Shown in pieces: positions 4,051 through 17,223 of a stretch of 64,000 nucleotides of DNA. The DNA comes from a virus. A program made the translations under genes and the position numbers. The notes below the pieces were generated by a model. That model did no database searches. It had not been told where the DNA came from and saw nothing but the letters and a program-made list of their open reading frames with translations. The stretch spans positions 50,035 to 114,034 of the IMG/VR virus record IMGVR_UViG_3300034071_001431, one strand, 5' to 3'. Every line of letters begins with the position of its first letter. Position 1 is the stretch's first letter.

Positions 4051-4126
4051 TGGTGCAACCTGTAGGAATCGAACCTACTTCAACGGTTCTTCAAACCGCC
4101 GCTATGACCACATCAGCTAAAGTTGC
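4051..4126 (-). tRNA. tRNA-Phe(GAA)
   Basis: Cloverleaf with anticodon loop TTGAAGA, T-loop TTCGATT and encoded CCA. Detached from the main cluster, two bases after a small ORF. Confidence 0.92.
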
Positions 4127-4127
4127 T

Positions 4128-4319
4128 TTAATCTATTACTAGGTTTTGTTCGAGTACTTGCTTGACTTTGTGTGCCTCTGCAATAAGCTCAGCAATCTTT
4201 TCATCAATGTTAGCATACGTTACGTCACGTACATCAATGCTAACAGTAAACTTAGTATCTAAACAAAGTTCCTTGTTAGCATTTTTGGATATTTTACCCG
4301 AAGGTGATAACTTAATCAT
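4128..4319 (-). CDS. Hypothetical protein, 63 aa
   Basis: Unrecognised. N-terminal basic stretch, then a VSIDVRDVTYANIDEKI segment and a helix (AELIAEAHKVKQVLEQ) that could form a short coiled coil. An AGGAG site precedes the ATG. The stop is one base from tRNA-Phe, so both are likely on one transcript. Confidence 0.55.
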   Translation of the reverse strand: MIKLSPSGKISKNANKELCLDTKFTVSIDVRDVTYANIDEKIAELIAEAHKVKQVLEQNLVID

Positions 4320-4330
4320 ATACTACTCCT

Positions 4331-4825
4331 TTACATATTGCTTTTAGTTAAGTGATGTCTATAATCATCACGCCAATTGTGTTGCTCGTCTGGGTTATGT
4401 GTTAACCCTAACAGCTTCATTAGTTTGTGTTTAACACGTAGGTTAGGACTACGAAACTTTTCAGTATCTCTAAAGCCCATCATAACACCAATCTCTACTA
4501 CTGCACCGCTACGACATAAACCTGCATGACAGTGAACAACAATGTTTATATGCTCAGCTAACGCACGTTGTAGCAACTGTAAAATTGCTTCTGCTTGCGC
4601 ATCGCTAATCAATGGCTCTTCACCGTACTCTGCAACATCGGTATCTTCTGCATCTAAAAACTTAAACTGATGCACTTCTTTAAATGCATGCTTTGGTGTT
4701 GGAAAAAGAGTAATAGGGTCAACGATTTGAATAAGCATAGAGTTAGCGCCAGCATCAAAGTGCTCGCCTACTTGTATGTCTTTCATACTAACGTTTTCAA
4801 TCCATGGTTTAATCATCATATTCAT
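4331..4825 (-). CDS. Protein tyrosine / dual-specificity phosphatase-like
   Basis: 164 residues. The catalytic P-loop is HCHAGLCRSG with Cys99 and Arg105 (HC-x5-R), preceded by an IVV strand. Such enzymes use the Cys as nucleophile for phosphotyrosine, phosphoserine or other phosphate esters. A possible general-acid Asp lies in the upstream DAEDTD stretch. The start overlaps the preceding gene by 17 bases and AAGGATG lies just upstream. T4-like phages often carry such phosphatases next to tRNA or nucleotide genes; target unknown. Confidence 0.72.
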   Translation of the reverse strand: MNMMIKPWIENVSMKDIQVGEHFDAGANSMLIQIVDPITLFPTPKHAFKEVHQFKFLDAEDTDVAEYGEEPLISDAQAEAILQLLQRALAEHINIVVHCHAGLCRSGAVVEIGVMMGFRDTEKFRSPNLRVKHKLMKLLGLTHNPDEQHNWRDDYRHHLTKSNM

Positions 4826-5186
4826 CCTTATAATACTCGGGGTGTTTAGCTCTTACAATAAGATGTGTGCCCATTGCACTTCCACTGCTAAACTGTGCTC
4901 CTACCTTAAACTTTCTTCCGTTAAGTGTAAATGGTATTAATACACTATCGCCATTCCACCAACTACGCTGTATACTAATATATCCATCTGCACCTAACTG
5001 CTCGCGCAACTTAGCAAACTCTGGGTGGTCAGCCGAACTCGTAGTCGAACATTCGCCCTTACCTTGTATAATTAAAATAAGTTCTTCTGCTGTGGGTACA
5101 CGACCATTGCGTGTATACGTGTTCCACTCATCACGAATAGTTACACTTGTTAAGTATTCTGGGTCGATTGTAAAGTCCACTACCAT
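4809..5186 (-). CDS. Hypothetical protein, 125 aa
   Basis: Unrecognised, no clear domain. Mixed alpha/beta composition with a central serine-rich loop (STTSSADHPEF) and acidic C-terminus (EYYKDEYDD). Overlaps both neighbours (7 bases with the upstream gene), typical of a tightly packed phage operon. Confidence 0.6.
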   Translation of the reverse strand: MVVDFTIDPEYLTSVTIRDEWNTYTRNGRVPTAEELILIIQGKGECSTTSSADHPEFAKLREQLGADGYISIQRSWWNGDSVLIPFTLNGRKFKVGAQFSSGSAMGTHLIVRAKHPEYYKDEYDD

Positions 5187-5440
5187 ACCTCACTTTTTAA
5201 TATCTGTAGCATTACTTCTTGCTGTTCTTCTTCGGTTAGCTTTGCTAACTCAGGGCGATCTCTATGCTTATACCAAATCATATTACCATCAACAGTTAGT
5301 GTAACTATAGTATGTGCCTTGTAGACAAGTTGTCCGGGTAGTTGTGTACCGCGATATACCACATACTGCCCGACGGTTCTACTACTGAACGCACGGTTCA
5401 TATCTGCACCAAGTGGCCCCATGTCGCAATAGTATGTCAT
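5180..5440 (-). CDS. Hypothetical protein, 86 aa
   Basis: Unrecognised. Contains a beta-rich middle (YVVYRGTQLPGQLVYKAHTIVTLTV) and an acidic helix ending QILKSEVW. Its ATG overlaps the preceding stop as ATGA. Confidence 0.6.
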   Translation of the reverse strand: MTYYCDMGPLGADMNRAFSSRTVGQYVVYRGTQLPGQLVYKAHTIVTLTVDGNMIWYKHRDRPELAKLTEEEQQEVMLQILKSEVW

Positions 5441-5601
5441 CGTTTCTTTCTAATGTTTCTATTGTACACTTCACCGTTTGGAAGTTTACCATCTATTACG
5501 CCAGCAACTCCCATCTTTCCTACAATGATAAGTTCTTCTGGCTTAATAGTTTGTAGTGCTTCTTTATCTTTAATCCATTGCGGTTTTAATTTAGAAGTCA
5601 T
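5437..5601 (-). CDS. Hypothetical protein, 54 aa
   Basis: Unrecognised basic protein. The frame is open to 5679, but the region upstream of 5601 is inside the neighbouring gene; the ATG at 5601 (MTSKLKPQ) gives a normal 11-base overlap and is preferred. An ATG at 5619 is the alternative. No strong ribosome site at either. Confidence 0.5.
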   Translation of the reverse strand: MTSKLKPQWIKDKEALQTIKPEELIIVGKMGVAGVIDGKLPNGEVYNRNIRKKR

Positions 5602-5953
5602 ATACTTTTGGTTTTCCATCTGTGTGTAAATAATGCCACAACACTTTCTTATCGAAGTCTGCTCGTATAGTCGGGTCACTGCACCATTTTTTAACTATGT
5701 CAGCATTACCATAACTATTGTGTGGTGCATGATGTACAATCCATTTGGCAATATTTGCCATTGATGGACTGTTTGCATGATCTGCTTTAAATGCCGCAGT
5801 AAACAGATCACCCTCGAGCATAGCAGTTAAAAAACTACCCGGCTCCATACCATGTACAAAGTATCGTACCAATGCTTCGTGGGCAGGTTTCGGAATACTA
5901 TACGTTGTCTGCCAGTCATTGTATTCTAACCAATCTAATTCACTGTGTGCCAT
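5591..5953 (-). CDS. Hypothetical protein, 120 aa
   Basis: Unrecognised, helical, aromatic-rich (ELDWLEYNDWQTTYS; WIVHHAPHNSYGNADIVKKW). The start at 5953 is chosen because it lies one base after the upstream stop (TAACATG) and AAGAGAG lies before it; the frame extends further upstream inside the neighbour. Confidence 0.6.
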   Translation of the reverse strand: MAHSELDWLEYNDWQTTYSIPKPAHEALVRYFVHGMEPGSFLTAMLEGDLFTAAFKADHANSPSMANIAKWIVHHAPHNSYGNADIVKKWCSDPTIRADFDKKVLWHYLHTDGKPKVYDF

Positions 5954-5954
5954 G

Positions 5955-6353
5955 TTACTGCTCTCTTTTAAAAGAAACTTCCTCTGAATAGTAACCGTTG
6001 CTTGAACCATACCATCTGATGTCAACGTACCCTTTGCGAGTTGCTAATTTATAAAATGTCCATGTGTGTGACCCGTATTCATCTTCTTCTACTTCACCTG
6101 CAGATTTAATCAAGTCAAATAAGTTTTGTGCTTCTTCTGCCATTAAGATTTCTTCGCCAACTAAGTCAGCTAAGTCACCAACGATAGATTCGATTGATAC
6201 TGATTCACAACAAGATTGTTCGTGATACAAAGTGTATACTTCGCCGTCTGTAGTCACAAACTTCATTTCATCGTTGTATTCGTTGACTACTACGCTTGTC
6301 AACACTTTACCTTTTAATTCGTTAAATTCTACTTCTTTATAGTTGTAAGACAT
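5955..6353 (-). CDS. Conserved phage protein, DUF7448-like
   Basis: 132 residues. The hallmark is H-E-Q-S-C-C-E-S-V-x-I near 44-54, which resembles a family of small phage proteins (DUF7448-type, function unknown), flanked by strands (KFVTTDGEVYTLY; TFYKLATRKGYVDIRWYG). First gene of the operon running down to 4128, with AGGAGG before its ATG and a consensus promoter at 6380-6408. The family name is from memory of the motif and should be checked. Confidence 0.6.
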   Translation of the reverse strand: MSYNYKEVEFNELKGKVLTSVVVNEYNDEMKFVTTDGEVYTLYHEQSCCESVSIESIVGDLADLVGEEILMAEEAQNLFDLIKSAGEVEEDEYGSHTWTFYKLATRKGYVDIRWYGSSNGYYSEEVSFKREQ

Positions 6354-6379
6354 AATAGCCTCCTTTTTTAATTAAGTGT

Positions 6380-6408
6380 ATTATACATTCATATTGTTGT
6401 TTTGTCAA
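6380..6408 (-). promoter_or_regulatory. Consensus sigma-70 promoter
   Basis: Minus strand TTGACA-17-TATAAT, perfect hexamers, driving the operon starting at 6353. It lies directly after tRNA-Gly(GCC). Confidence 0.85.
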
Positions 6409-6416
6409 TCGAAATT

Positions 6417-6490
6417 TGGAGCGGCTAGCGAGAATCGAACTCGCGATTAAACTTTGGCAAAGTTTTAGGTTTCCATTACATCATAGCCGC
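6417..6490 (-). tRNA. tRNA-Gly(GCC)
   Basis: 7-bp acceptor stem, anticodon loop TTGCCAA, T-loop TTCGATT, encoded CCA. Last gene of the main cluster in transcription order. Confidence 0.92.
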
Positions 6491-6500
6491 ATTTTAATCT

Positions 6501-6562
6501 TACTGCTCAGTAACATTTGAACTGATTTAGCCGGTTTTGACGGCAAATGTTACTGAGCAGTA
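6501..6562 (-). repeat. Perfect 19-bp inverted repeat between two tRNAs
   Basis: Arms 6501-6519 and 6544-6562 are exact reverse complements (TACTGCTCAGTAACATTTG) with a 24-base loop. It fills the spacer between tRNA-Arg(ACG) and tRNA-Gly(GCC). No T-run follows, so it is not an ordinary terminator. Confidence 0.85.
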
Positions 6563-6572
6563 ACATTTTATT

Positions 6573-6650
6573 TGGTGCGCCCGGAGGAAATCGAATCCCC
6601 AACCTCATGCTTCGTAGGCATGTGCTCTAATCCAATTGAGCTACGGTCGC
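6573..6650 (-). tRNA. tRNA-Arg(ACG)
   Basis: Anticodon loop CTACGAA, T-loop TTCGATT, encoded CCA. One mismatch (A-G) in the acceptor stem. A34 would need deamination to inosine by host TadA to read CGN codons. Confidence 0.9.
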
Positions 6651-6660
6651 ATTAAAACTA

Positions 6661-6718
6661 CTATGCTAGTATTTTAGAAGTATTATAAGGATAGTTGCCT
6701 AAAATACTACTATACTAG
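6661..6718 (-). repeat. Imperfect inverted repeat between tRNA genes
   Basis: Core arms TAGTATTTTAG (6667-6677) and CTAAAATACTA (6699-6709) are exact; flanks pair with mismatches. Sits in the spacer between two tRNA-Arg genes. Confidence 0.6.
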
Positions 6719-6729
6719 CTTTTATGATT

Positions 6730-6800
6730 TGGAGCCCCCGAACGGTATCGAACCGCTTCTTTCGGCTTCGAAGGCCAAAGTCCGTCCATCGGCGGGGGCA
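6730..6800 (-). tRNA. tRNA-Arg(TCG), short D-arm
   Basis: Anticodon loop CTTCGAA, T-loop TTCGATA, encoded CCA. Only 71 bases, with a reduced D-arm, and T-T at the first acceptor position. It reads as a tRNA but is the least regular member. Confidence 0.75.
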
Positions 6801-6805
6801 TTGTT

Positions 6806-6882
6806 TGGTAGAGATGGTAGGATTTGAACCTACGGTAGCTTGCGTATGAAGCAAGTGCATTAGGCCACTATGCTACATCTCT
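6806..6882 (-). tRNA. tRNA-Met(CAT), elongator
   Basis: Anticodon loop TTCATAC, perfect acceptor stem, encoded CCA. Called elongator because separate initiator-like and Ile2-like CAT tRNAs exist in the window. Confidence 0.88.
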
Positions 6883-6892
6883 ATATCGAAAG

Positions 6893-6969
6893 TGGAGTAT
6901 GTGACAGGAGTCGAACCTGCATAATACGGGGTTGCAATCCGCAGCTTATCCATTCAGCTACACACATAC
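6893..6969 (-). tRNA. tRNA-Cys(GCA)
   Basis: Acceptor GTATGTG/CACATAC, anticodon loop TTGCAAC, encoded CCA; one mismatch at the base of the anticodon stem. Confidence 0.88.
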
Positions 6970-6975
6970 ATTGTT

Positions 6976-7051
6976 TGGCACCCCCTGATGGACTCGAACC
7001 ACCGAATGACAGGATCAAAACCTGTTGCCTTACCAGCTTGGCGAAGAGGGT
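6976..7051 (-). tRNA. tRNA-Gln(TTG)
   Basis: Acceptor ACCCTCT/AGGGGGT (one G-T), anticodon loop TTTTGAT, T-loop TTCGAGT, encoded CCA. Confidence 0.92.
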
Positions 7052-7110
7052 ATAAGTGATATTTTTAGAATGAGTTGGGAGTTATCCTCCCCGGATGTCC
7101 GTAATCCTAA

Positions 7111-7138
7111 GTTCGAGGTTGCAACTCCTTAGGGGTCA
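7111..7138 (-). repeat. Small hairpin in tRNA spacer
   Basis: CCTAAG and CTTAGG arms with an inner GAGGTTGCAACTC palindrome. The surrounding spacer 7052-7202 contains no tRNA or ORF that I can support. Confidence 0.4.
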
Positions 7139-7202
7139 CTAGTAAATTCTAGCTATAGCAGGGTGCGCATTGTTAAGTGGCGAGCCCGGACAATTCTTTG
7201 TT

Positions 7203-7278
7203 TGGTCCGGCGTGAGGGAATCGAACCCCCAACTAGGGAGTAGAAATCCCCTGTTATGTCCATTTAACTAACACCGGA
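7203..7278 (-). tRNA. tRNA-Arg(TCT)
   Basis: Acceptor TCCGGTG/CGCCGGA, anticodon loop TTTCTAC, T-loop TTCGATT, encoded CCA. Reads AGA/AGG. Confidence 0.92.
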
Positions 7279-7283
7279 ATTAC

Positions 7284-7373
7284 TGGCGGAGAGTCAGGGA
7301 GTCGAACCCTGTCAACCGTATAAAGGGTTGTACACCTTAGCAGGGTGGTGCCTTACCGTCCGGCCCACTCTCC
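7284..7373 (-). tRNA. tRNA-Ser(GCT)
   Basis: Class II tRNA, 90 bases with a long variable arm; anticodon loop CTGCTAA; encoded CCA. Confidence 0.9.
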
Positions 7374-7383
7374 AAATGCTATA

Positions 7384-7794
7384 TTACATTGTTACTTTAG
7401 GTTTTGCTTGTTTTTTATTATTTTTAAGTATGCCATATACAGCACCGCATAACCATTGCCCTTGTGCATCATACATCTTGTCACCGCTAATGTCCCAAAA
7501 GTATGTATTGGATTCACCGCTTGGATAAGCATTAATTAATGTGCCACGTTGCTTTAATAAGCATTCTTCAACATCAATAGCAGATACAAATACAAGGTCG
7601 GTGTTTACATATTGCATATTGACAAATATACCTGTACTTTTTTTAGTACCTTTTTTGTATTCTTTAACCTTTACTGATTCAACATCAGCAATTAAACGTA
7701 CTCCATCACCCGAATCAGTTACCACTGCCCAATTTTCAGCGTGTGCTGTGATTGTAAACAAAAGTGCTAACGATAATACTACAGTGCGTAACAT
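7384..7794 (-). CDS. Secreted protein, surface-adhesin E-like
   Basis: 136 residues. Residues 1-19 are a Sec signal peptide (MLRTVV..., hydrophobic core, ITAHA cleavage site). The mature part opens WAVVTDSGDGVRLIADVESVKV and continues with alternating strands, with two Cys (near 78 and 116) that could form a disulfide in the periplasm; this resembles the small surface-adhesin protein E family of proteobacteria. AAGGAA precedes the ATG. It lies between two tRNA-Ser genes, 10 bases from one, so it shares the tRNA transcript. Function unknown; periplasmic location is the firm part. Confidence 0.65.
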   Translation of the reverse strand: MLRTVVLSLALLFTITAHAENWAVVTDSGDGVRLIADVESVKVKEYKKGTKKSTGIFVNMQYVNTDLVFVSAIDVEECLLKQRGTLINAYPSGESNTYFWDISGDKMYDAQGQWLCGAVYGILKNNKKQAKPKVTM

Positions 7795-7812
7795 ATTATT
7801 CCTTAATAAAAT

Positions 7813-7902
7813 TGGCGGAAGCGGTGAGATTCGAACTCACGGAGCATTTCTGCTCGGCAGTTTTCAAGACTGCAGCCATAAACCAGACTCGACCACACTT
7901 CC
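7813..7902 (-). tRNA. tRNA-Ser(TGA)
   Basis: Class II tRNA with long variable arm; anticodon stem GCAGT/ACTGC, loop CTTGAAA; encoded CCA. Confidence 0.92.
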
Positions 7903-7913
7903 ATTTAAAATTT

Positions 7914-7943
7914 ATTATAGCAAGTCACCGCCTTATTCGTCAA
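7914..7943 (-). promoter_or_regulatory. Sigma-70-like promoter inside the tRNA cluster
   Basis: Minus strand TTGACG-18-TATAAT, 12 bases before tRNA-Ser(TGA). One mismatch in the -35. Confidence 0.6.
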
Positions 7944-8047
7944 CCGAAGTTGTGATCTTTTCCTTGCCTGACAGCTTTTTCAACTAGGGTTTTTCAATAC
8001 TACCTGGATGCTGTTTACCCCAAACACGTAGCGGTACAAAGATTCTT

Positions 8048-8123
8048 TGGTGCATCGAGAAGGTAACGATCCTTCCGCCTATCGCTTATCAAGCGAGTGC
8101 TCTACCTCTGAGCTACCGATGCA
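8048..8123 (-). tRNA. tRNA-Ile(GAT) with unusual T-loop
   Basis: Acceptor TGCATCG/CGATGCA and anticodon loop TTGATAA are regular, CCA encoded. The T-loop is ATCGTTA instead of TTCRANY: T54 is A and A58 is T, a swap that could keep a 54-58 pair. Confidence 0.88.
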
Positions 8124-8271
8124 TATAAAAGGTTTTTGAGCGCCTAGCTATCTGTACCGGACAGCCTTGCTAGATTGTCTCGAATCGGAGAGATCAACAT
8201 ATTTCGCGCAATTCCATAATCCATTGATGCGGACGCTACTTAGGACTCAATCCAACCGTCTATCTCAAAAC

Positions 8272-8346
8272 TGGCTCCGAAGGGTGGGATCGAACCACCG
8301 ACCAAAAGATTAACAGTCTTCTGCGCTACCGCTACGCTACTTCGGA
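8272..8346 (-). tRNA. tRNA-Asn(GTT)
   Basis: Acceptor TCCGAAG/CTTCGGA, anticodon loop CTGTTAA, T-loop TTCGATC, encoded CCA. Confidence 0.92.
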
Positions 8347-8353
8347 ATTGACT

Positions 8354-8430
8354 TGGTGGAAGATAAAGGGATCGAACCTTTGACCTTGGCCTTGTAAGGG
8401 CCCTGCTCGTACCAGCTGAGCTAATCTTCC
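8354..8430 (-). tRNA. tRNA-Val(TAC)
   Basis: Acceptor GGAAGAT/ATCTTCC, anticodon loop CTTACAA, T-loop TTCGATC, encoded CCA. Confidence 0.92.
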
Positions 8431-8437
8431 TATAATA

Positions 8438-8513
8438 TGGTGGAGGTGACAAGGATCGAACTTGCTACATCCTGCTTGCAAAGCAGGCGCTCTCCCAAAT
8501 GAGCTACACCCCC
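8438..8513 (-). tRNA. tRNA-Ala(TGC)
   Basis: Acceptor GGGGGTG/CACCTCC (one G-T), anticodon loop TTTGCAA, T-loop TTCGATC, encoded CCA. Confidence 0.92.
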
Positions 8514-8810
8514 GTATTTCTTTTCTATAATATATAATGTTCATCTACTTTGTTAGTAGTGGACTGTACCGCGCAGTCACTTTCTATAATGTTACACGAT
8601 AGTAATAAGTGTTTTGCTACTTCGCACTACCAAAGCCCAAAACTGAGTAGTTACCCTGTCCAACTGTTTCCTTATGGGTGCAACAGTAAATAACCTACGC
8701 ATTTCTCAAGTCGCTCACGTAATAAGCCTTGCAGTAGAGCGTATGCACTGTGCTAGTATGGTCATTAGCAATATACCCACTTTGATAAAGTAAAAGTGTA
8801 ACCTGGTGTT
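8514..8810. other. Unassigned spacer in tRNA cluster
   Basis: About 300 bases without a supportable ORF or tRNA. Small hairpins are visible (for example CTACT-TTGTT-AGTAG near 8547) but no known RNA family was recognised. Confidence 0.4.
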
Positions 8811-8884
8811 TGGAGCGGGATATCAGAATCGAACTGATGACAGAAGTTTGGAAAACTCCAGTTTTGCCATTAAACTAATCCCGC
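8811..8884 (-). tRNA. tRNA-Gly(TCC)
   Basis: Acceptor GCGGGAT/ATCCCGC, anticodon loop TTCCAAA, T-loop TTCGATT, encoded CCA. Confidence 0.92.
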
Positions 8885-8888
8885 ATGT

Positions 8889-8973
8889 TGGTGCGAATGG
8901 TCGGACTTGAACCGACATGCCCTGCGGCGAGGGATTTTAAGTCCCTTGTGTATACCAATTTCACCACACTCGC
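8889..8973 (-). tRNA. tRNA-Leu(TAA)
   Basis: Class II tRNA with variable arm, anticodon stem AGGGA/TCCCT, loop CTTAAAA, T-loop TTCAAGT, encoded CCA. Confidence 0.92.
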
Positions 8974-8981
8974 TTTACTAC

Positions 8982-9066
8982 TGGTGCGGCTGGTCAGACT
9001 CGAACTGACACGTCTTTCGACACGAGCTTCTAAGACTCGCATGGCTACCAATTACATCACAACCGC
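8982..9066 (-). tRNA. tRNA-Leu(TAG)
   Basis: Class II tRNA, anticodon stem CGAGT/GCTCG, loop CTTAGAA, encoded CCA. Its 5' 15 bases overlap the end of the HNH gene. Confidence 0.92.
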
Positions 9067-9504
9067 TTTTTTCTTTCTGCCACCCTTACGATTAAGAGCA
9101 ATTTTTCTTTTGTGCTCTTCAGTTAGGGTCTTACCTTTATTTGCTTTGCCGCCAGCAGATTTATTACCTTTAGCGTTTAATCTACAAGCTTCTTCGTAAC
9201 CATATTTGGCAACTGTTCTGTCCCAAATTGAATTGCCAGGGCCTTGATCTAATCTATTTTCTTGTGCTGTACCCCAATATAAATGATTAGGATTACTACA
9301 CTTTTCGTTATTACAAGCATGACAGATATGTATCTTGTGCCCGCTCGGAATAGTTGTGTTTAGTATATGAGCCATTAAACCTTTACAATAACTAGACAAT
9401 CCACCTTTTATAGGTCCGCCTCGTTCTATACAGGGTTCTGTTAAAACTAAGTGCTGCTGTCTTGCTTCTTTAGGCTGTGTAATGTATTCTTCTATTAATA
9501 ACAT
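9052..9504 (-). CDS. HNH homing endonuclease
   Basis: 150 residues. Zinc/HNH core: H-I-C-H-A-C-N-N-E-K-C-x-N-P-x-H-L-x-x-G-T-x-x-E-N at about 56-82, as in free-standing phage HNH nucleases. A basic C-terminal tail (GGKANKGKTLTEEHKRKIALNRKGGRKKK) resembles a NUMOD-type DNA-binding motif. AGGAG lies upstream of the ATG. The last 15 bases are inside tRNA-Leu(TAG), and 50 bases upstream lies a 5' fragment of another tRNA-Leu, so the gene sits between leucine tRNA sequences, a classical insertion context for homing nucleases. Confidence 0.8.
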   Translation of the reverse strand: MLLIEEYITQPKEARQQHLVLTEPCIERGGPIKGGLSSYCKGLMAHILNTTIPSGHKIHICHACNNEKCSNPNHLYWGTAQENRLDQGPGNSIWDRTVAKYGYEEACRLNAKGNKSAGGKANKGKTLTEEHKRKIALNRKGGRKKKAVVM

Positions 9505-9556
9505 TTCGTATCTCCTTATGTTTATTTAGCTAAACACAGTGAAAAACGTTAATTAA

Positions 9557-9583
9557 TGTGTATACCAATTCCACCAAAGAGGC
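9557..9583 (-). pseudogene. tRNA-Leu 5' fragment
   Basis: On the minus strand GGTGGAATTGGTATACACA matches the D-arm region of tRNA-Leu(TAA) (GGTGAAATTGGTATACACA) with one difference, but no anticodon arm or 3' half follows. Remnant of a third leucine tRNA disrupted next to the HNH gene. Confidence 0.65.
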
Positions 9584-9867: not shown

Positions 9868-9942
9868 TGGTTGCGGAGGACGGATTCGAACCGCCGATCT
9901 AAAGGTTATGAGCCTTCCGGGTTGCCACTTCCCCACCCCGCG
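9868..9942 (-). tRNA. Initiator tRNA-fMet(CAT)
   Basis: Acceptor CGCGGGG/CTCCGCA has an unpaired C1-A72, the hallmark of bacterial initiators. Anticodon loop CTCATAA; T-loop TTCGAAT; encoded CCA. The anticodon stem has only two of the three usual G-C pairs next to the loop. Confidence 0.85.
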
Positions 9943-10348
9943 ATAAAAGTTCTGCGGCCAGTACAGGCCTGTTATCATGTGCAGAATCATGGCTAATTTC
10001 AAAGATGGAGTTTCACCATAGGCATTAACTACCCTTCGGACGGTTTGCTATTCTCTCCTAACCTCGAATACATAATGTAATAGCTTTCTTCCATGTACTT
10101 ATTTGTTACTATCTATACAGTGTAGCAGTTTTGATATGTGTTGTCAACTACTACTACTTAAATTAAATGCTCTGACGGGTGTGCGCGGTAGACTCCAGCA
10201 TCACTTAATGGACTACATGCCTTTCGCCGCTGGCCACACCCCGCTCTCGGATTGCCACCGCTAGTTTGGTAAGACTAGAACCACCCTTGGCTATCACACC
10301 ACTTCTCATCGTGCGGGTCACAATATCCATTGATTAGATGGAACGTCC
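9943..10348. other. Structured spacer of unknown function
   Basis: About 400 bases without a supportable ORF or tRNA, containing a promoter at 10119-10147. The part 10155-10345 is GC-richer than coding DNA here and has short complementary blocks, so a non-coding RNA is possible. I recognised no known family. Confidence 0.35.
10119..10147 (-). promoter_or_regulatory. Sigma-70 promoter inside the tRNA cluster
   Basis: Minus strand TTGACA-17-TACACT. It would transcribe fMet, Thr and the downstream half of the cluster. Confidence 0.65.
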
Positions 10349-10436: not shown

Positions 10437-10514
10437 TGGCGACACTTACGGAATTCGAATCCGTGATCTCTACCGTGACAGGGTAGCGCATTAAGCCAGC
10501 TATGCTAAAGTGCC
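10437..10514 (-). tRNA. tRNA-Asp(GTC)
   Basis: Anticodon stem CTACC/GGTAG, loop CTGTCAC, T-loop TTCGAAT, encoded CCA. Confidence 0.92.
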
Positions 10515-10572: not shown

Positions 10573-10647
10573 TGGGTTGACTAACCGGGTTCGAACCGGT
10601 GATGAAGGAATCACAATCCTTAGTATTACCACTATACTATAGTCAAC
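10573..10647 (-). tRNA. tRNA-His(GTG)
   Basis: Anticodon loop TTGTGAT, encoded CCA, and the extra G at -1 paired with C73 that identifies tRNA-His is encoded. Confidence 0.92.
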
Positions 10648-10652
10648 ATTGA

Positions 10653-10734
10653 AACCATACAGAAACACACTGTGGGCGTTGCTATGCAGCATACTAAATC
10701 TAGTCTAGTTGCGAACAATGTGTTTTCTTATGGT
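10653..10734 (-). repeat. Imperfect inverted repeat between tRNA-Lys and tRNA-His
   Basis: Arms ACCATACAGAAACACACT (from 10653) and AATGTGTTTTCTTATGGT (10717-10734) pair at about 15 of 18 positions. The arm next to tRNA-Lys includes its CCA trailer. Confidence 0.65.
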
Positions 10735-10809
10735 GGTAGGAGAGATGGGGTACGATCCCACAACCTCGAAATTAAAAGTTTCTTGCTCTGCCAGTTGAGC
10801 TACTCTCCC
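10734..10809 (-). tRNA. tRNA-Lys(TTT) with unusual T-loop
   Basis: Anticodon loop CTTTTAA, acceptor GGGAGAG/CTCTCCT. The T-loop is ATCGTAC: A at 54 and T at 58, the same swap as in tRNA-Ile(GAT). The encoded CCA is followed at once by a second CCA (CCACCA). Confidence 0.88.
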
Positions 10810-10921
10810 ATATATGTATAAAGATGTTTAACGTGCCTATCCTTAATCATACATGGGATTAAAGACGACACTAAAGTTTACCTCGCTTCATGTGTTGCTC
10901 CTATTAAATTTACTACAAAAC

Positions 10922-11007
10922 TGGTGGGCAAGGATGGAATCGAACCAACTCAACCAGGGGTAACAGATTTACAGTCTGCTGCGCCTCTCCAACTGCGCCG
11001 CTTGCCC
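10922..11007 (-). tRNA. tRNA-Tyr(GTA)
   Basis: Class II tRNA; acceptor GGGCAAG/CTTGCCC, anticodon loop CTGTAAA, variable arm, encoded CCA. Confidence 0.92.
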
Positions 11008-11013: not shown

Positions 11014-11102
11014 ATACCATATTGAAGCATACTATAATTCTAAGTTTAACGGCCAGAGTTAACTTGGCATTAGAAACGGTACAATATGCTTCAATATGGT
11101 AT
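11014..11102 (-). repeat. Perfect 18-bp inverted repeat between tRNA-Glu and tRNA-Tyr
   Basis: Arms 11014-11031 and 11085-11102 are exact reverse complements (ATACCATATTGAAGCATA). The right arm includes the 3' TACCA end of tRNA-Glu, so the hairpin would pair with the unprocessed tRNA end. Confidence 0.85.
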
Positions 11103-11172
11103 CGCGTAGCGGAATCGAACCGCTCCTAGTTGGATGAAAACCAACTGTTCTAACCGATAAACTAACGCGATA
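11097..11172 (-). tRNA. tRNA-Glu(TTC)
   Basis: Acceptor TATCGCG/CGCGATA, anticodon stem GTTGG/CCAAC, loop TTTTCAT, encoded CCA. Confidence 0.92.
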
Positions 11173-11222: not shown

Positions 11223-11250
11223 ATTATACACTCTTTAATTTATTTGTCAA
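11223..11250 (-). promoter_or_regulatory. Sigma-70 promoter for the tRNA cluster
   Basis: Minus strand TTGACA-16-TATAAT, about 50 bases before tRNA-Glu. Confidence 0.75.
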
Positions 11251-11316: not shown

Positions 11317-11644
11317 GATCGTTTCTCCTTTAGCATTTTATCCGCCTGCAATTAAGTATAAATCAGCGGTTATAACTTTAATTCCTGTAAGTACTACAGG
11401 GCGGGATAGTTATGTTTCCCTACTGCGCTCTAGATTGGGGGCTTCCTTGGATACTACGCCAGTACGCTATCCTCGTTCTCGTAGGGATTAAACCCCTTCC
11501 TGCCACACCTCAGTCCACAGGACTATACTTGCCTGTGTTCAAGTTAAATTGTTCCGCAAGCTCCATTGTACGCTTCCCTATCCTAAGCCGGACACAGGCG
11601 TCTTGCGCTTCTAATGAGGTCGCAACCCTCTCTAGGCGGTTTTC
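11317..11644 (-). other. Structured non-coding RNA candidate
   Basis: About 330 bases, GC-richer than the coding DNA nearby, with no supportable ORF. Contains several exact hairpins: CCTGTA-AGTAC-TACAGG near 11383-11400, AGTCC-ACA-GGACT near 11512-11525, and a CCG/CGG-closed stem near 11341-11368. Lies between tRNA-Pro and the 20-aa ORF. It does not show the conserved blocks of tmRNA or RNase P RNA that I know. Confidence 0.4.
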
Positions 11645-11722: not shown

Positions 11723-11726
11723 TTAA

Positions 11727-11746
11727 ACGCACTCATATGAATGCGT
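11727..11746. repeat. Near-palindrome
   Basis: ACGCACTCATATGAATGCGT, a 20-base almost complete palindrome just upstream of tRNA-Pro. Confidence 0.5.
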
Positions 11747-11828
11747 ATAATAAAGTACACTAATTGCTCTCTTAAGACATAATCCACATTGCGTGGGACC
11801 TAGTTGCCGATTAATGTACTTTATTATA
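11746..11828 (-). repeat. 19-bp inverted repeat upstream of tRNA-Pro
   Basis: Arms 11746-11764 and 11810-11828 pair at every position with one G-U wobble in the minus-strand RNA (TATAATAAAGTACATTAAT). Loop of about 45 bases. Confidence 0.75.
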
Positions 11829-11932
11829 ACAAGTATTTTCTGTTCACAAAAGAACATGCCATCCACTTGTCCGCCCATTTGCCTTTTTAACGTGTGTGCC
11901 GCGATCTCGTTTCGCATAACACGTACTGCTTA

Positions 11933-12078: not shown

Positions 12079-12112
12079 CAAAAAACCCTAGTCTTTCGAG
12101 CTAGGGTTTAAG
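12079..12112 (-). terminator. Rho-independent terminator
   Basis: Minus strand AAACCCTAG-loop-CTAGGGTTT followed by T-run, after the 41-aa ORF. Confidence 0.8.
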
Positions 12113-12143
12113 TAAAAATTCATTTCTGATATAAAAATAAACG

Positions 12144-12269
12144 TTAACTTAAACCCTCATTATGCGGTGTGCGATCATTACTGCCTAATGTCTCAATCGC
12201 TGACCAATAAGACATCGTGGCAAGTATCTGCACTGGTGATTTCTTAAATTGATTACACGTTTTAAACAT
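12144..12269 (-). CDS. Small protein, 41 aa
   Basis: Begins MFKTCNQFKKSPVQI, ends NEGLS. AGGAAG precedes the ATG; consensus promoter at 12311-12339 and terminator at 12079-12112 frame it as a single-gene unit, which supports expression. Unrecognised. Confidence 0.5.
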   Translation of the reverse strand: MFKTCNQFKKSPVQILATMSYWSAIETLGSNDRTPHNEGLS

Positions 12270-12310
12270 TTTGCTTTCGCTTCCTTTAATTAATTTCTTA
12301 TTAAGCTGCT

Positions 12311-12339
12311 ATTATATATTCTATTTATACTCTTGTCAA
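12311..12339 (-). promoter_or_regulatory. Consensus sigma-70 promoter
   Basis: Minus strand TTGACA-17-TATAAT upstream of the 41-aa ORF. Confidence 0.8.
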
Positions 12340-12363
12340 GTACTTTATCTATTTATTTATCAT

Positions 12364-13098: not shown

Positions 13099-13285
13099 CG
13101 TTGATTACATCAATTCCTGCTGTATCACCTAATTCACTTACTGCTTCTACTGCGGCTTTTTTCTTTGGTGCGCCCCAGAAGTTAGTTGTTGCTGTTTCGC
13201 TTTGTACACCGCGGGCAATTTGTTTGATTTCCCCACCTGTAGCTAAGAACTCTTGCATTGCTTGTTGGTATTCTTCGTTTGTCAT
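13091..13285 (-). CDS. Hypothetical protein, 64 aa
   Basis: Unrecognised. Contains Y-x-x-A-M-x-x-F-x-x-x-G-G-x-I-K-Q-I near 6-23, which resembles a segment of the 536-aa protein at 29692-31302 (Y-D-G-A-M-S-D-F-K-K-K-G-G-Q-V-K-Q-L). GGAAC is upstream of the start; promoter at 13307-13335. Confidence 0.6.
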   Translation of the reverse strand: MTNEEYQQAMQEFLATGGEIKQIARGVQSETATTNFWGAPKKKAAVEAVSELGDTAGIDVINDV

Positions 13286-13306
13286 ATTGTTCCTTAAGTT
13301 TTAATT

Positions 13307-13335
13307 AGTATAGCAAATTAATTGTCAGCCGTCAA
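13307..13335 (-). promoter_or_regulatory. Sigma-70 promoter
   Basis: Minus strand TTGACG-17-TATACT; overlaps the 3' end of the SGNH gene and drives the 64-aa and acyltransferase genes. Confidence 0.65.
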
Positions 13336-14175
13336 CTGATTTTTTATTATATAGTTGTAGAGATAATCAGCCCAACGTTCGTGCCCTTCTTCTCGCGGAT
13401 GCCAACGTTTAAATAACAACGGGTTTACATTCATTAAGTCTCGACGTTCGTTAATCATGTTATACCATGTCTCACCAACTTCTGTTTTAAACTTATTAGT
13501 TATTAATTCGTTGCGTTCTAAAAATTTTGCAATTGACCAAACTCCCGAACCCTGCATATAACAAGGATTTAACGGAATATCAAATAATAAATCAATCCAA
13601 TGTTTAGGAGTCTGCGTTGGGTGCGATATTATAGAATTAGTAAACGCAGGGCCAGCAATACACCTAACTGTAGGATTTTGTTTCAACACCTGATCAATTC
13701 TTTGGTAGTGCCAAGTTTCGACATCTTGCAATACATCCATTATTGATTGATTAGCAGTGTCGGCAAATGATGTTTTATACTGAGTGATCACTCGAGTTTC
13801 GTATTCACCGTCAAGTTCCCTACCATGATCACTAAATCCCAACACTGCTATAATCTTTTTAGTCTGCGGAACTAGTTGCGGCACTAACTTTTCAAATTCA
13901 CCAATGACCCAATCCCAACTGCCCCCAGGTAAGGCTATCTGTACCCAATTGGCTCCTAACTTTTGTGCTAATGAATTACCAAACACCTTAGATATTCTAT
14001 AGTCAGTATCACCACAGGCCTCTGAGCGTAGCCCATTGGACACTCCAAGTTCATCTCCCCAAGTCCAACTATCACCAATGGTCAGCAATGTGACATCGGA
14101 CCCAACATTGCGATTTACAGTTAAATCGACCCAGGCCCAATTGATATCAAATCTAAGATCAAATTCATTTACCAT
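13318..14175 (-). CDS. SGNH/GDSL-like hydrolase
   Basis: 285 residues from the ATG at 14175, chosen because AAGGAC lies 8 bases upstream and it overlaps the previous stop by a few bases. Block I is LLTIGDSWTWGDELG (GDSW, Ser nucleophile), a middle GFSDHGRE segment could hold the block III residue, and the C-terminal WHPREEGHERWADYL matches the block V pattern of SGNH esterases with a catalytic His. Such enzymes remove or transfer acyl groups from sugars. Its place in the cassette suggests work on a polysaccharide, but substrate is unknown. Confidence 0.6.
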   Translation of the reverse strand: MVNEFDLRFDINWAWVDLTVNRNVGSDVTLLTIGDSWTWGDELGVSNGLRSEACGDTDYRISKVFGNSLAQKLGANWVQIALPGGSWDWVIGEFEKLVPQLVPQTKKIIAVLGFSDHGRELDGEYETRVITQYKTSFADTANQSIMDVLQDVETWHYQRIDQVLKQNPTVRCIAGPAFTNSIISHPTQTPKHWIDLLFDIPLNPCYMQGSGVWSIAKFLERNELITNKFKTEVGETWYNMINERRDLMNVNPLLFKRWHPREEGHERWADYLYNYIIKNQLTADN

Positions 14176-14999
14176 GTAGTCAGTCCTTGTGTCCATTGCC
14201 ATTGAATCCATTCGTTGGTGTATTCCTGAAGTTGTTCAATTGAATAATTTCTTAAATTATCCTTTGGAAAATTTGGTCTAATAACAACAGATATTTCTTC
14301 CGAAAGTCTATTAGAATTATCTACCATTGATGCTAACCGACGAGCTAGTAGATAATCAAGCAAGACCCAATGATTATTCATTTGAGTTGGCCAATACGTT
14401 AACGTATTGTTAAACTTTGACATTTTAACCGAGTTAGTATAATAGAATCTATTACCTATCACATCGTTTGTAAAAGAGTTAGCCCTATTATAAAAATCAC
14501 CTATCTGCGGAAATGAAATTATATCACTATCATAGATAGTCCCTATTAGGTATTCAAACTCGTTACACATTACCATTGCATTGTACGTTGTGCTGTGTGG
14601 TTTATACAGATCAGGGCGCAATTCCATTACCTGATCGTATACAAAATTATTATCAAATTCGTGGCGCCGTTTTAAGGTATTAGCAATTTTGGCCAAGTAC
14701 GATTGATAGTAAAATGTAATATCATGCCTAGGTAATACAGCCTGATTAATTATTTTATAATTTATTAAATTTCTATCTACGAATTTAGAAGTAATCTCAG
14801 CAGGATCTACTTTGCGTGTTGAACTAATCGAATGTTCCTCTGGCCACCAAAAATCTCGAGTATCTGCCCATGTAGCAAAATAGTAATCAACCTGAAGTGC
14901 GTTATCTTCAGCAAAAGCAAAGATATAGTCTGATGCTCGGTTCCAGGATCTTAGTTCACCACATATTAGGACTGCTAGTTTTTTAATCTTCGCCGACAT
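14169..14999 (-). CDS. Putative glycosyltransferase-like protein
   Basis: 276 residues. Opens LAVLICGELRSWNRASDYIF and continues with YYFATWAD, a pattern seen in poorly characterised surface-polysaccharide glycosyltransferase-like proteins (GxxR, then DxxxxTW), with VMELRPDLY near 120 as the typical R-P-D motif. No full known domain could be confirmed. Sits in an operon with other sugar genes, overlapping both neighbours. Confidence 0.45.
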   Translation of the reverse strand: MSAKIKKLAVLICGELRSWNRASDYIFAFAEDNALQVDYYFATWADTRDFWWPEEHSISSTRKVDPAEITSKFVDRNLINYKIINQAVLPRHDITFYYQSYLAKIANTLKRRHEFDNNFVYDQVMELRPDLYKPHSTTYNAMVMCNEFEYLIGTIYDSDIISFPQIGDFYNRANSFTNDVIGNRFYYTNSVKMSKFNNTLTYWPTQMNNHWVLLDYLLARRLASMVDNSNRLSEEISVVIRPNFPKDNLRNYSIEQLQEYTNEWIQWQWTQGLTTW

Positions 15000-15390
15000 A
15001 AAATTCGTATCCTAAACGATTAATTAAAAATATTATTTTTTCTGCTAATAACAATTGTGTATCATTGTCTACTTCTTTAAAATTCAGACGAGTAAAATTT
15101 ACTTTGTATAAACTACCCAATACAGAAAAGACATGTGGCTTACAATAAAAGGAATCTGTATAATCATCTGATATATAATACACCCCATTGTGGTGTAATT
15201 GTTTAACAAAAATACTATCATAATTTATAATAGGTGTATTCACTAGCAAGCACACTAGCTTCACAGGTAATTGGTCAAATAGGATTTTTTCATCCATTTG
15301 AAGTGCTAGGTCAGCTAGTTGTTTGCTTGGTGATTCCTTATCCGACTCTAACAGTGCCATCCCTGTATCAGTTAGTAATGCTAATTTCAT
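14983..15390 (-). CDS. Hypothetical protein, 135 aa
   Basis: Unrecognised, AT-rich. Alternating hydrophobic strands, no signal peptide. ATGA overlap with the upstream gene and 17-base overlap with the downstream one place it firmly in the sugar operon. Confidence 0.55.
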   Translation of the reverse strand: MKLALLTDTGMALLESDKESPSKQLADLALQMDEKILFDQLPVKLVCLLVNTPIINYDSIFVKQLHHNGVYYISDDYTDSFYCKPHVFSVLGSLYKVNFTRLNFKEVDNDTQLLLAEKIIFLINRLGYEFYVGED

Positions 15391-16385
15391 ATATGATCAC
15401 CTAAATCATTACTATTTCGTTCTAAATTGATTGCTATTGCACTTGGAGCAGGATTAGTAGTAGCATAATCATTTATTAATATCCGTTGAGAATGGTGTAG
15501 GCCTGCTAGTAATCTAAAATTACTAAATCCAATATTTTTCAACATCTGGTCTATTGCATTATAAAATTTTTGCGGGCGAGCAGTTACAAAAATAAGTTCG
15601 ACACCTTGTCCTTGTAATTCTAAAAGTTTATTACATGTTTCAGTTAATATCTCGGGTGCATCTATATAATATGGCGGAAAGAATTCTGATTGGTTTTTAA
15701 TTATTACACCATCTATATCACAAAATATAGTTTTAAAGTTGCGATTGTATTTAACAAACTTAGTTAAATTACCCAAATCAACATAATTAGTAACAGTAAC
15801 AGGCATAAAGTTTTCAGCAGATAACATTTGATTTATTACATGCGAGATGTATACTTCGTGGTCAACTGGAATTAACTGTACTGCATCAACAAACTGTTTA
15901 CTACTTAAAAAGCCATATCCTCCTACACAGGCAATGTCACTGATGCGATTTTTTTCAGCAATATTAGTAACACAATCATTTTTTATATGCACATAGCTTG
16001 ACATTGGGTCAGTTTGATTATCTTTAACGCATATAAAATTACCGCAAGGTAATGTGGTATTAAACAAGCTATCACAATCTTTAATGAATATAGCACGATC
16101 TGTGATATTACGTATAGCTGCAACAGCTGAATGTGCAGGGCCATTACTAGGGTTATCTAATACAGTGATTGACATATTATTGTATATATTACTAAGTGTA
16201 GCAGATACATTAAATTTTTCATCGTGCTCACGTAAAATTACAACATGGATGTAGTCAATCTGTGCGACATATAAATCAATAACATGCTCAATCATGAATC
16301 TACCATCATACATAGTTAACCAATATTTTGGTCTATTAGTAGCATATCTAAGGCTTTTGCCTGCGGCTAGTAATACTAAATCCAT
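15387..16385 (-). CDS. Nucleotidyltransferase-HAD phosphatase fusion
   Basis: 332 residues from the ATG at 16385 (an upstream TTG would overlap the previous gene by more). N-terminal half: MDLVLLAAGKSLRYATNRPKYW, the LAAGxGxR...PK signature of sugar/alcohol-phosphate nucleotidyltransferases, up to about residue 220. C-terminal half: HAD phosphatase with FCDIDGVI (motif I), FVTARP (motif II) and ILINDYA (motif IV). Predicted to activate a phosphorylated small molecule and to remove a phosphate in the same pathway. The adjacent kinase fits a LicA/LicC-like route. Substrate inferred only. Confidence 0.7.
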   Translation of the reverse strand: MDLVLLAAGKSLRYATNRPKYWLTMYDGRFMIEHVIDLYVAQIDYIHVVILREHDEKFNVSATLSNIYNNMSITVLDNPSNGPAHSAVAAIRNITDRAIFIKDCDSLFNTTLPCGNFICVKDNQTDPMSSYVHIKNDCVTNIAEKNRISDIACVGGYGFLSSKQFVDAVQLIPVDHEVYISHVINQMLSAENFMPVTVTNYVDLGNLTKFVKYNRNFKTIFCDIDGVIIKNQSEFFPPYYIDAPEILTETCNKLLELQGQGVELIFVTARPQKFYNAIDQMLKNIGFSNFRLLAGLHHSQRILINDYATTNPAPSAIAINLERNSNDLGDHI

Positions 16386-17128
16386 AATTGATTTATCTGC
16401 ATAATTAAAAAATTGCGGTCTTTCATTGATGTACAATACGGAATCACACGAAGTAACATAAAAATTAATAAAAAATTATTACTAGTATACGAATTTATAT
16501 CTTTTACAGCGGAATTAATATAGTTGATCTTATCAGCCACATCACTGTGTATAGTTACGTTCCGTGTAAACCACAGACATTCAGTATCTTGTCTTATTTT
16601 AGCAGAATCAAATGCTACTGAATTAAGGTTAGTATGATTAGCATCAATAAGATAAAAATTGTCGTTCCAATAGATTATATTTTCAAGTGTTAAGTCACCG
16701 TGATATATGCCACATGGCACGTGTGTTGGTAGTTGGTCGTATAATTCGTGTAATTTAAATAAAAGCCCCGGAAGTTTGCACCGTTCTAATTGCTCAAACT
16801 TTTCTTGGATATGTAACCTAATATCTGTTACTATAGATTGTTTTTCAAATGTATGTAATATAGTTGACAAAAACTCAATTAATTTATGTATGTCTTTGTC
16901 TTGTTGTATATAATCCGCCATACTAAGACCATCTAAATAACGCATTACTACCCGAGTAGGGCTAATAAAATAATAGTCAGGGATTTTAATTTGCAATTTA
17001 GCAAGTGTTTGTAATACGGCGTAATCTAAGTCGAGTTGCGACCCATTGCTTTTAATTATAACTGGAACATTATTATTAACTGTTAATTCTAATTTACATC
17101 CGGAATTACCTGTTAGTTGAATTGCCAT
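16376..17128 (-). CDS. APH/LicA-like small-molecule kinase
   Basis: 250 residues; the ATG at 17128 (MAIQLTGNSG) with AGG upstream is preferred because the longer frame runs into tRNA-Ile2. Brenner motif YHGDLTLENI near 155-164 and LIDAN near 173-177 are the catalytic and Mg-binding motifs of aminoglycoside phosphotransferase/choline kinase-like proteins; VVMRYLDGLSM near 68 is the hinge region. With the next gene, a kinase plus nucleotidyltransferase pair, this suggests activation of a small alcohol or sugar for surface decoration. Confidence 0.68.
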   Translation of the reverse strand: MAIQLTGNSGCKLELTVNNNVPVIIKSNGSQLDLDYAVLQTLAKLQIKIPDYYFISPTRVVMRYLDGLSMADYIQQDKDIHKLIEFLSTILHTFEKQSIVTDIRLHIQEKFEQLERCKLPGLLFKLHELYDQLPTHVPCGIYHGDLTLENIIYWNDNFYLIDANHTNLNSVAFDSAKIRQDTECLWFTRNVTIHSDVADKINYINSAVKDINSYTSNNFLLIFMLLRVIPYCTSMKDRNFLIMQINQLWI

Positions 17129-17146
17129 TTTTTTACCTGAAATGTT

Positions 17147-17223
17147 TGGTGGGCCTTGATGGACTTGAACCATCGACCAATGGATTATGAGTCCACTGCT
17201 CTGACCAACTGAGCTAAAGGCCC
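17147..17223 (-). tRNA. tRNA-Ile2(CAT), lysidine type
   Basis: Anticodon loop CTCATAA but body (TTAGCTCAGTTGGTCAGAGC, T-loop TTCAAGT) closely resembles E. coli tRNA-Ile2, whose C34 is made into lysidine by TilS to read AUA. Acceptor GGGCCTT/AAGGCCC; encoded CCA. Lies 10 bases after the omega-like gene. Confidence 0.85.

What the first reader, a model, noticed from the sequence alone, without database searches (positions are those of the whole stretch)
4051..17223. Phage-encoded tRNA set covers all 20 amino acids, with initiator and lysidine-type Ile2
I can fold 27 tRNAs: Phe, Gly x2, Arg x3, Met, fMet, Cys, Gln, Ser x2, Ile(GAT), Ile2(CAT), Asn, Val, Ala, Leu x2, Thr, Trp, Asp, His, Lys, Tyr, Glu, Pro. 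All carry encoded CCA. A full set including three different CAT tRNAs is rare even in large phages and suggests the phage replaces much of the host decoding system, perhaps after host tRNA cleavage.
Basis: partly seen in the sequence, partly recalled or inferred. Interest (0 to 1): 0.75.

Follow-up and report, generated by a model that had tools for sequence, protein, structure and literature searches.

The report
Complete phage tRNA set, new RNAs
A giant uncultivated bacterial virus carries one tRNA for every step needed to read all 61 amino-acid codons, and between those tRNA genes lie several previously undescribed folded RNAs, one of which recurs in the tRNA arrays of at least 120 other virus sequences.

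Summary
The three CAT tRNAs separate into initiator, elongator Met and Ile2. Under standard bacterial wobble rules the 27 read all 61 sense codons with no redundancy; without Arg-TCG only CGG is lost. A divergent relative (G005) has exactly the same 27 types, with gene order scrambled (2 of 26 adjacencies) and 65% mean identity, so the set is kept while its genes turn over. tRNA richness itself is known: jumbo phage XacN1 covers all 20 amino acids.
The unexpected result lies between the tRNAs. Spacer 8606-8800 is a ~195-nt non-coding RNA with strong covariation (40 of 42 pairs with double changes in 85 distinct copies). It occurs in at least 120 IMG/VR contigs, nearly all inside tRNA arrays on the tRNA strand. 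It is absent from Rfam 15 and gave no match in 50,697 phage records, GTDB genomes or plasmids. Other spacers (notably 10165-10346, 11726-11913) are further conserved, probably structured elements.
Most likely: a decoding-complete tRNA operon for use when host tRNAs fail, co-transcribed with new ncRNAs of unknown function. Host tRNA cleavage was not testable.

The parts
4051..4126 (-). tRNA-Phe (GAA)
   Evidence: ARAGORN; Rfam 60.9 bits
6417..6490 (-). tRNA-Gly (GCC)
6573..6650 (-). tRNA-Arg (ACG)
6730..6799 (-). probable tRNA-Arg (TCG), shortened D arm; the only gene of the set that reads CGG
   Evidence: 28.1 bits vs cutoff 29; not called by ARAGORN; sequence
6806..6882 (-). tRNA-Met (CAT), elongator
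   Evidence: TTCATAC loop class
6893..6967 (-). tRNA-Cys (GCA)
6976..7051 (-). tRNA-Gln (TTG)
7069..7189 (-). conserved structured spacer RNA S3
   Evidence: 16 hits, all same strand as tRNAs; covariation 0.524 vs shuffled 0.185+-0.033; no phage match
7203..7277 (-). tRNA-Arg (TCT)
7284..7373 (-). tRNA-Ser (GCT)
7813..7902 (-). tRNA-Ser (TGA)
7916..8043 (-). conserved spacer element S4, weaker structure support
   Evidence: 16 hits same strand; covariation 0.299 vs 0.187
8048..8122 (-). tRNA-Ile (GAT)
8127..8270 (-). conserved structured spacer RNA S5
   Evidence: 14 hits same strand; covariation 0.352 vs 0.177; no phage match
8272..8346 (-). tRNA-Asn (GTT)
8354..8430 (-). tRNA-Val (TAC)
8438..8513 (-). 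tRNA-Ala (TGC)
8606..8800 (-). array RNA A (S6): new ~195-nt structured ncRNA, core GGACAGRGTAACNRCTCAGTTNNGGGC
   Evidence: CM R1 177 bits; covariation; distribution; absent from Rfam and from phage, plasmid and genome collections
8811..8884 (-). tRNA-Gly (TCC)
8889..8973 (-). tRNA-Leu (TAA)
8982..9066 (-). tRNA-Leu (TAG)
9052..9504 (-). HNH endonuclease ORF wedged into the array, overlapping the 5' end of tRNA-Leu(TAG)
9540..9583 (-). orphan 5' part of a tRNA-Leu
   Evidence: sequence; 9558-9585 matches a 28-base stretch of L103
9597..9672 (-). tRNA-Thr (TGT)
9868..9942 (-). tRNA-fMet (CAT), initiator, C1/A72 mismatch
9944..10150 (-). conserved spacer element S7
   Evidence: 23 hits same strand; covariation 0.379 vs 0.157
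10165..10346 (-). conserved structured spacer RNA S8
   Evidence: 21 hits, 20 with same-strand tRNA; 23 of 46 predicted pairs with compensatory changes in 12 sequences; no phage match
10349..10422 (-). tRNA-Trp (CCA)
10437..10514 (-). tRNA-Asp (GTC)
10573..10646 (-). tRNA-His (GTG)
10734..10809 (-). tRNA-Lys (TTT)
10827..10901 (-). conserved spacer element S11
   Evidence: 15 hits same strand
10922..11007 (-). tRNA-Tyr (GTA)
11097..11171 (-). tRNA-Glu (TTC)
11223..11250 (-). promoter-like TTGACA-16-TATAAT, 12/12 match, upstream of tRNA-Glu
   Evidence: consensus match only
11380..11644 (-). highly conserved spacer S14
   Evidence: nearly identical in L123 and L162; 6 loci; no phage match
11645..11722 (-). 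tRNA-Pro (TGG), first gene of the main array
11726..11913 (-). conserved leader element S15
   Evidence: 48 hits, 46 with same-strand tRNA; covariation 0.273 vs 0.140; no phage match
12311..12339 (-). promoter-like TTGACA-17-TATAAT, 12/12 match, upstream of the array
   Evidence: consensus match only
17147..17223 (-). tRNA-Ile2 (CAT, lysidine type), C4-C5 acceptor, CTCATAA loop

Best explanation
This is the tRNA operon of a large uncultivated myovirus distantly related to the Pseudomonas phage PA5oct group. Shown: it encodes 27 tRNAs, one per decoding task, that together read all 61 sense codons (60 if the marginal Arg-TCG is inactive); a divergent relative holds the same 27 types in another order and with diverged sequences; between the tRNAs, on the same strand, lie several conserved RNA elements, of which array RNA A is a new structured non-coding RNA family. 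Inferred: the region is transcribed as long precursors from strong sigma-70-type promoters; host RNases release tRNAs and spacer RNAs together; host enzymes charge and modify the tRNAs (lysidine on Ile2, inosine on Arg-ACG, U34 modifications); the full set lets the phage keep translating when the host tRNA pool collapses, through defence tRNases or host shut-off. Array RNA A is usually single-copy with changing neighbours, so it probably acts in trans as a stable RNA that shares the tRNAs' expression and processing.
For: tRNA set. Codon coverage and comparison with XacN1, Phosso, Atu_ph07, PA5oct. Same 27 types in G005 with 2 of 26 shared adjacencies (random 1.0) and mean identity 0.65. One gene per task regardless of use (CGG 1.1, AGG 1.0, ATA 19.7 per thousand). 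Promoter-like 12/12 matches upstream of the array. Array RNA A: 40 of 42 pairs with double changes, covariation 0.579 against 0.182 shuffled and at most 0.121 slid; 34 of 49 pairs including a pseudoknot on an alignment not fitted to the structure; at least 120 contigs; 119 of 129 profile hits within 600 nt of a same-strand tRNA and none with only an opposite-strand tRNA; no open frame in any of 31 copies; neighbouring tRNAs vary; one copy in 15 of 18 positive records, two in 3.
Against: Arg-TCG is below the Rfam cutoff and not called by ARAGORN. Only two of the arrays examined are fully complete under these rules; many others are truncated or lack a few anticodons, so completeness is not a fixed trait. 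No RNA-seq, no host and no tRNA-targeting defence were available. The spacer families were first collected from contigs chosen for carrying array RNA A, which inflates their co-occurrence with arrays. Three tRNA-rich relatives (G007, G011, G012) lack array RNA A, so it is not required for tRNA richness.
Confidence: 0.55

Rival explanations
1. Codon compensation: the phage carries tRNAs to supplement codons that its AT-rich genome uses more than the host does.
For: The phage is 34-43% GC and uses A/T-ending codons heavily; ATA is 19.7 per thousand and an Ile2 gene is present. XacN1 tRNAs were reported to match codons used more by phage than host (PMC5852040).
Against: Every task is filled once, including those for rare codons (CGG 1.1, AGG 1.0 per thousand) and the initiator, which codon bias does not demand; no gene is duplicated for frequent codons; a diverged relative has the identical set.
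Confidence: 0.2
2. Neutral accumulation: jumbo phages capture tRNA genes easily and the complete set is the tail of a random process.
For: Related arrays vary widely in content and many are redundant or incomplete; the window was picked because it looked complete.
Against: No redundancy in 27 genes; identical set in G005 despite scrambled order and 65% identity; 99 complete sets in 200,000 draws even without replacement.
Confidence: 0.15
3. The spacer RNAs are only processing or spacing sequences of the precursor, with no function as separate RNAs.
For: They sit directly between mature tRNA ends; hairpin spacers such as 6491-6572 and 11008-11096 look like simple stems.
Against: Array RNA A is usually single-copy, has variable neighbours, an invariant unpaired core and a conserved pseudoknot across phages whose terminases share as little as 36% identity; processing signals should recur at each tRNA.
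Confidence: 0.2

Closest known systems
tRNA-rich jumbo phage XacN1 (Xanthomonas; PMC5852040)
   Same: Jumbo myovirus, published as sister to Rak2-like phages; tRNA array covering all 20 amino acids (26 canonical tRNAs per terminal repeat).
   Different: Leaves 7 sense codons unread under the rules used here (no Leu-TAA, Arg-ACG or -TCG, Gly-GCC) and carries two amber suppressors; no array RNA A.
tRNA arrays of PA5oct, Atu_ph07 and Phosso
   Same: Closest isolated terminase relatives (54%, 51%, 50% identity), with 12, 31 and 59 tRNA matches.
   Different: None reads all 61 codons by the same rules; no significant array RNA A (best 11.7 bits, E 0.16).
Mycobacteriophage cluster C1 tRNA clusters (about 33 tRNAs; PMC10264068)
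   Same: Large tRNA clusters proposed to replace host tRNAs cut by anticodon nucleases.
   Different: Unrelated phages; host and nucleases known there, unknown here; decoding completeness not compared.
GOLLD and ROOL RNAs (PMC12286853)
   Same: Large structured ncRNAs of unknown function, encoded in phages often near tRNA islands.
   Different: Much longer (many GOLLD RNAs exceed 800 nt) against ~195 nt; no GOLLD or ROOL match in the Rfam scans, so array RNA A is not a member.

Membership tests
tRNA (RF00005) | Covariance-model score above the gathering cutoff with cloverleaf and anticodon | tested here: met
   26 of 27 above 29 bits; Arg-TCG 28.1 bits, just below
initiator tRNA | Unpaired position 1-72 in a CAT tRNA | tested here: met
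   9868-9942: C1/A72
initiator tRNA | Three G-C pairs in the anticodon stem next to the loop | tested here: inconclusive
   9868-9942 has two G-C pairs and one A-T; homologues in related arrays vary
tRNA-Ile2 (lysidine) | CAT anticodon with TilS-type acceptor pairs C4-G69 and C5-G68 | tested here: met
   17147-17223 begins GGGCC, ends GGCCC before ACCA; rule from own knowledge
tRNA-Ile2 (lysidine) | Lysidine actually present at C34 | not testable with these tools
   needs RNA analysis
decoding-complete tRNA set | All 61 sense codons readable | tested here: met
   0 unread with Arg-TCG, only CGG unread without; depends on assumed wobble and host modifications
structured ncRNA (array RNA A) | Covariation beyond column composition and beyond shifted pairings | tested here: met
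structured ncRNA (array RNA A) | Expression as a discrete transcript | not testable with these tools
   no RNA data
GOLLD / ROOL | Match to Rfam covariance model | tested here: not met
   no match at gathering in the window, none at E<=3 in 4000-17400, none at E<=10 for the L162 copy
RNase P RNA | Match to Rfam RNase P models | tested here: not met
   none, although the CAAGGC..CUUGAG stretch resembles part of RNase P by eye
phage counter-defence tRNA set | Resistance of the tRNAs to host anticodon nucleases | not testable with these tools
   host unknown

The most novel reading that the evidence does not exclude
Array RNA A is a trans-acting phage RNA that handles tRNAs: it binds phage or host tRNAs, or mimics them as a decoy for anticodon nucleases, as the RNA arm of a viral takeover of decoding, with the other spacer RNAs as further parts of the same programme.
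Probability: 0.12. Interest if true: 0.88.

Novelty: new variant of a known kind. Interest (0 to 1): 0.62.

Why it matters
The role of phage tRNAs is a long-standing open question. A set that fills each decoding task exactly once, kept in two phages while gene order and sequence turned over, is a sharp prediction of the full-replacement idea and can be tested by removing single tRNAs. Array RNA A and the other spacer RNAs point to a layer of phage non-coding RNA that is not in Rfam and gave no match in isolated phage genomes, yet is frequent in environmental jumbo-type phages. An RNA held inside tRNA arrays across highly diverged phages suggests a function tied to tRNA supply or translation.

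Tried and rejected
Host identification: a fatty-acid desaturase of the phage found no bacterial relative in GTDB contigs; DNA search of the structural region found nothing close. Trade-off test, Ile-TAT against Ile2 as alternative AUA readers: only a weak tendency in 47 arrays (TAT only 14, Ile2 only 16, both 6, neither 11), not used as evidence. RNase P or T-box kinship of array RNA A (tRNA-elbow binding by interdigitated T-loops, PMC4810234): suggested by eye, no Rfam support, kept only as an idea. Group I intron at the orphan tRNA-Leu half: no Rfam match; an HNH endonuclease insertion explains it better. Coding potential of the 8606-8800 spacer: no frame open in any of 31 copies. Defence or counter-defence genes beside the array: PADLOC gave one weak metallophosphatase hit. 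Translation genes: no tRNA synthetase, tRNA nucleotidyltransferase, TilS, RNA ligase or Pnkp among the proteins scanned on the 114-kb fragment, which is only part of the genome.
Full report
What was checked. ARAGORN gives 26 tRNA genes, all on the minus strand, between 4051 and 17223, and Rfam's tRNA model gives the same 26 above its cutoff. A search of the whole record adds a 27th, Arg-TCG, at 28.1 bits, just below the cutoff of 29. All 26 ARAGORN genes end in CCA. The record is a 114,034-bp viral fragment of which the window is the last 64 kb.

What kind of phage. PHROGs identifies terminase, tail sheath and major head proteins, so this is a myovirus. Its terminase is 54% identical to the 287-kb Pseudomonas jumbo phages of the PA5oct group. 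Uncultivated relatives in IMG/VR are often tRNA-rich: 22 to 28 tRNAs in G001, G004, G005, G007, G011 and G012.

The three CAT tRNAs. Among 115 distinct CAT tRNAs from related arrays, three groups separate. The gene at 9868 has the C1/A72 mismatch of initiators. The gene at 6806 has a TTCATAC loop, as in elongator Met of several bacteria. The gene at 17147 has C4-C5 in its acceptor stem and a CTCATAA loop, the pattern recognised by TilS in Ile2 tRNAs (rule from own knowledge).

Completeness. With ordinary bacterial wobble rules (inosine for ACG, U34 reading four codons in family boxes except Arg and Gly, where it was limited to A and G), the 27 tRNAs read all 61 sense codons, and no type is duplicated; without Arg-TCG only CGG is lost. 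CGG is 1.1 per thousand in this phage. By the same rules XacN1 leaves 7 codons unread although it covers 20 amino acids, Phosso leaves 4 with 60 tRNAs, Atu_ph07 leaves 12, PA5oct 37 (the regions fetched for these were those holding listed tRNA matches). So coverage of 20 amino acids is already known in isolates (PMC5852040), while reading every codon with one gene per task is the special feature.

Is the set selected? The relative G005 (locus L103) has exactly the same 27 types. Only 2 of 26 neighbouring pairs are shared, against 1.0 expected at random, and the mean identity of corresponding tRNAs is 0.65, range 0.47 to 0.87. A close relative, L100, shares 16 of 22 adjacencies, so order decays with distance while the set is kept. 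Drawing 27 types without replacement from the anticodon frequencies of related arrays gave the complete set 99 times in 200,000; independent draws never did in 20,000. This is descriptive, because the window was chosen for looking complete and G005 was found among about 50 arrays. Coverage that ignores codon frequency argues against plain codon compensation.

Spacers. The gaps between tRNAs include GC-rich and structured stretches, and several are conserved in other phages at different places in the array. The best is 8606-8800, between Gly-TCC and Ala-TGC. Nearly all lie inside tRNA arrays and on the tRNA strand, typically starting about 150 nt before the core, right after one tRNA, and ending just before the next, but the neighbouring tRNAs differ.

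Structure of array RNA A. On 31 diverse copies aligned without regard to structure, a hand-drawn fold of nine helices, including a pseudoknot between P3 and the helix that encloses P4, has 34 of 49 pairs with changes on both sides; covariation score 0.406 against 0.167 in shuffles and at most 0.121 with slid pairings. The covariance model R1 built from them finds 104 copies in the pattern-selected loci. On the 85 distinct rows 40 of 42 pairs show double changes, score 0.579 against 0.182 and 0.121 (this alignment leans towards the model). No reading frame is open in any of the 31 copies and lengths vary from 191 to 205. In 1.09 Mb of related phage DNA not selected by the pattern, R1 hits five places, all in arrays. 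Of 21 large records 18 carry it, 15 once and 3 with a second weak copy; where a terminase was found, it is 98% to 36% identical to this one. It has no match in Rfam 15, in 50,697 phage records, in plasmids or, by exact pattern, in GTDB genomes, and R1 finds nothing significant in five isolated jumbo phages.

Other spacer RNAs. Iterated profiles from the window's other spacers recover S3 (16 hits), S4 (16), S5 (14), S7 (23), S8 (21), S11 (15) and S15 (48), almost always next to same-strand tRNAs. Consensus folds score better than column-shuffled alignments and covariation exceeds shuffles for S3, S5, S7, S8 and S15; for S8, 23 of 46 predicted pairs carry compensatory changes in 12 sequences. 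These rest on fewer sequences and on folds derived from the same alignments, so they are weaker than array RNA A. Spacer 11380-11644 is nearly identical in three phages and is followed by a conserved 20-codon frame, MNEHDTDVGGFGFPSYARQK in the window. S3, S5, S8, S14 and S15 have no match in isolated phages.

How it probably works. Three perfect sigma-70-type promoter matches lie on the array strand, at 12339, 11250 and 6408; the first two are upstream of tRNAs, the third precedes a protein gene beyond the main array. The likely course, inferred, is transcription of long precursors, processing by host RNases, and charging and modification by host enzymes, giving a pool that can decode any phage message if the host pool fails. 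Published work supports phage tRNAs as a reply to tRNA-cutting defences (PMC10264068, PMC11555353), but no host or nuclease could be tied to this phage. Array RNA A is best seen as a trans-acting RNA: usually single-copy, neighbours not fixed, invariant unpaired core. Its partner is unknown.

Limits. The genome is a fragment, host unknown, expression untested. Decoding rules assume host modifications. The survey of spacer families is biased towards contigs that carry array RNA A.

Noticed in passing
window 60878-60952 (-): freshwater-2 RNA motif (RF02980) just above its gathering score, directly upstream of the ORF 59927-60880.
   Followed up: no
window 9052-9504 and 9540-9583 (-): HNH endonuclease wedged into the tRNA array, overlapping the 5' end of tRNA-Leu(TAG), with an orphan tRNA-Leu 5' half nearby: a hint that homing endonucleases help shuffle the array.
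   Followed up: partly
window 11254-11316 (-): Conserved 20-codon frame (MNEHDTDVGGFGFPSYARQK) with a Shine-Dalgarno-like leader, directly after the highly conserved spacer 11380-11644; L123 and L162 have a variant with GGFGFP.
   Followed up: partly
L010:14842-16887 (record 34842-36887): Molybdopterin oxidoreductase gene in a phage genome, an unusual metabolic gene.
   Followed up: no
window 3254-4018; L011:2712-3458; L011:9054-9854: Three different fatty-acid desaturase genes in one phage fragment.
   Followed up: partly
L009:2194-3342; L010:2950-3975; L010:3959-5023: Three radical-SAM proteins in the same phage fragment (the third below Pfam's cutoff).
   Followed up: no
window 11726-11913 (-) and homologues in L102, L105-L108, L110: Leader element S15 (AACGAGGTCC...GGGCGGAC) is also found in tRNA-rich relatives that lack array RNA A (G007, G011, G012), so it may be the more widely spread of the array RNAs.
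   Followed up: partly
window 16376-17173 (-): Kinase-like ORF whose mechanical start lies inside tRNA-Ile2 (17147-17223); its true start is probably downstream.
   Followed up: no
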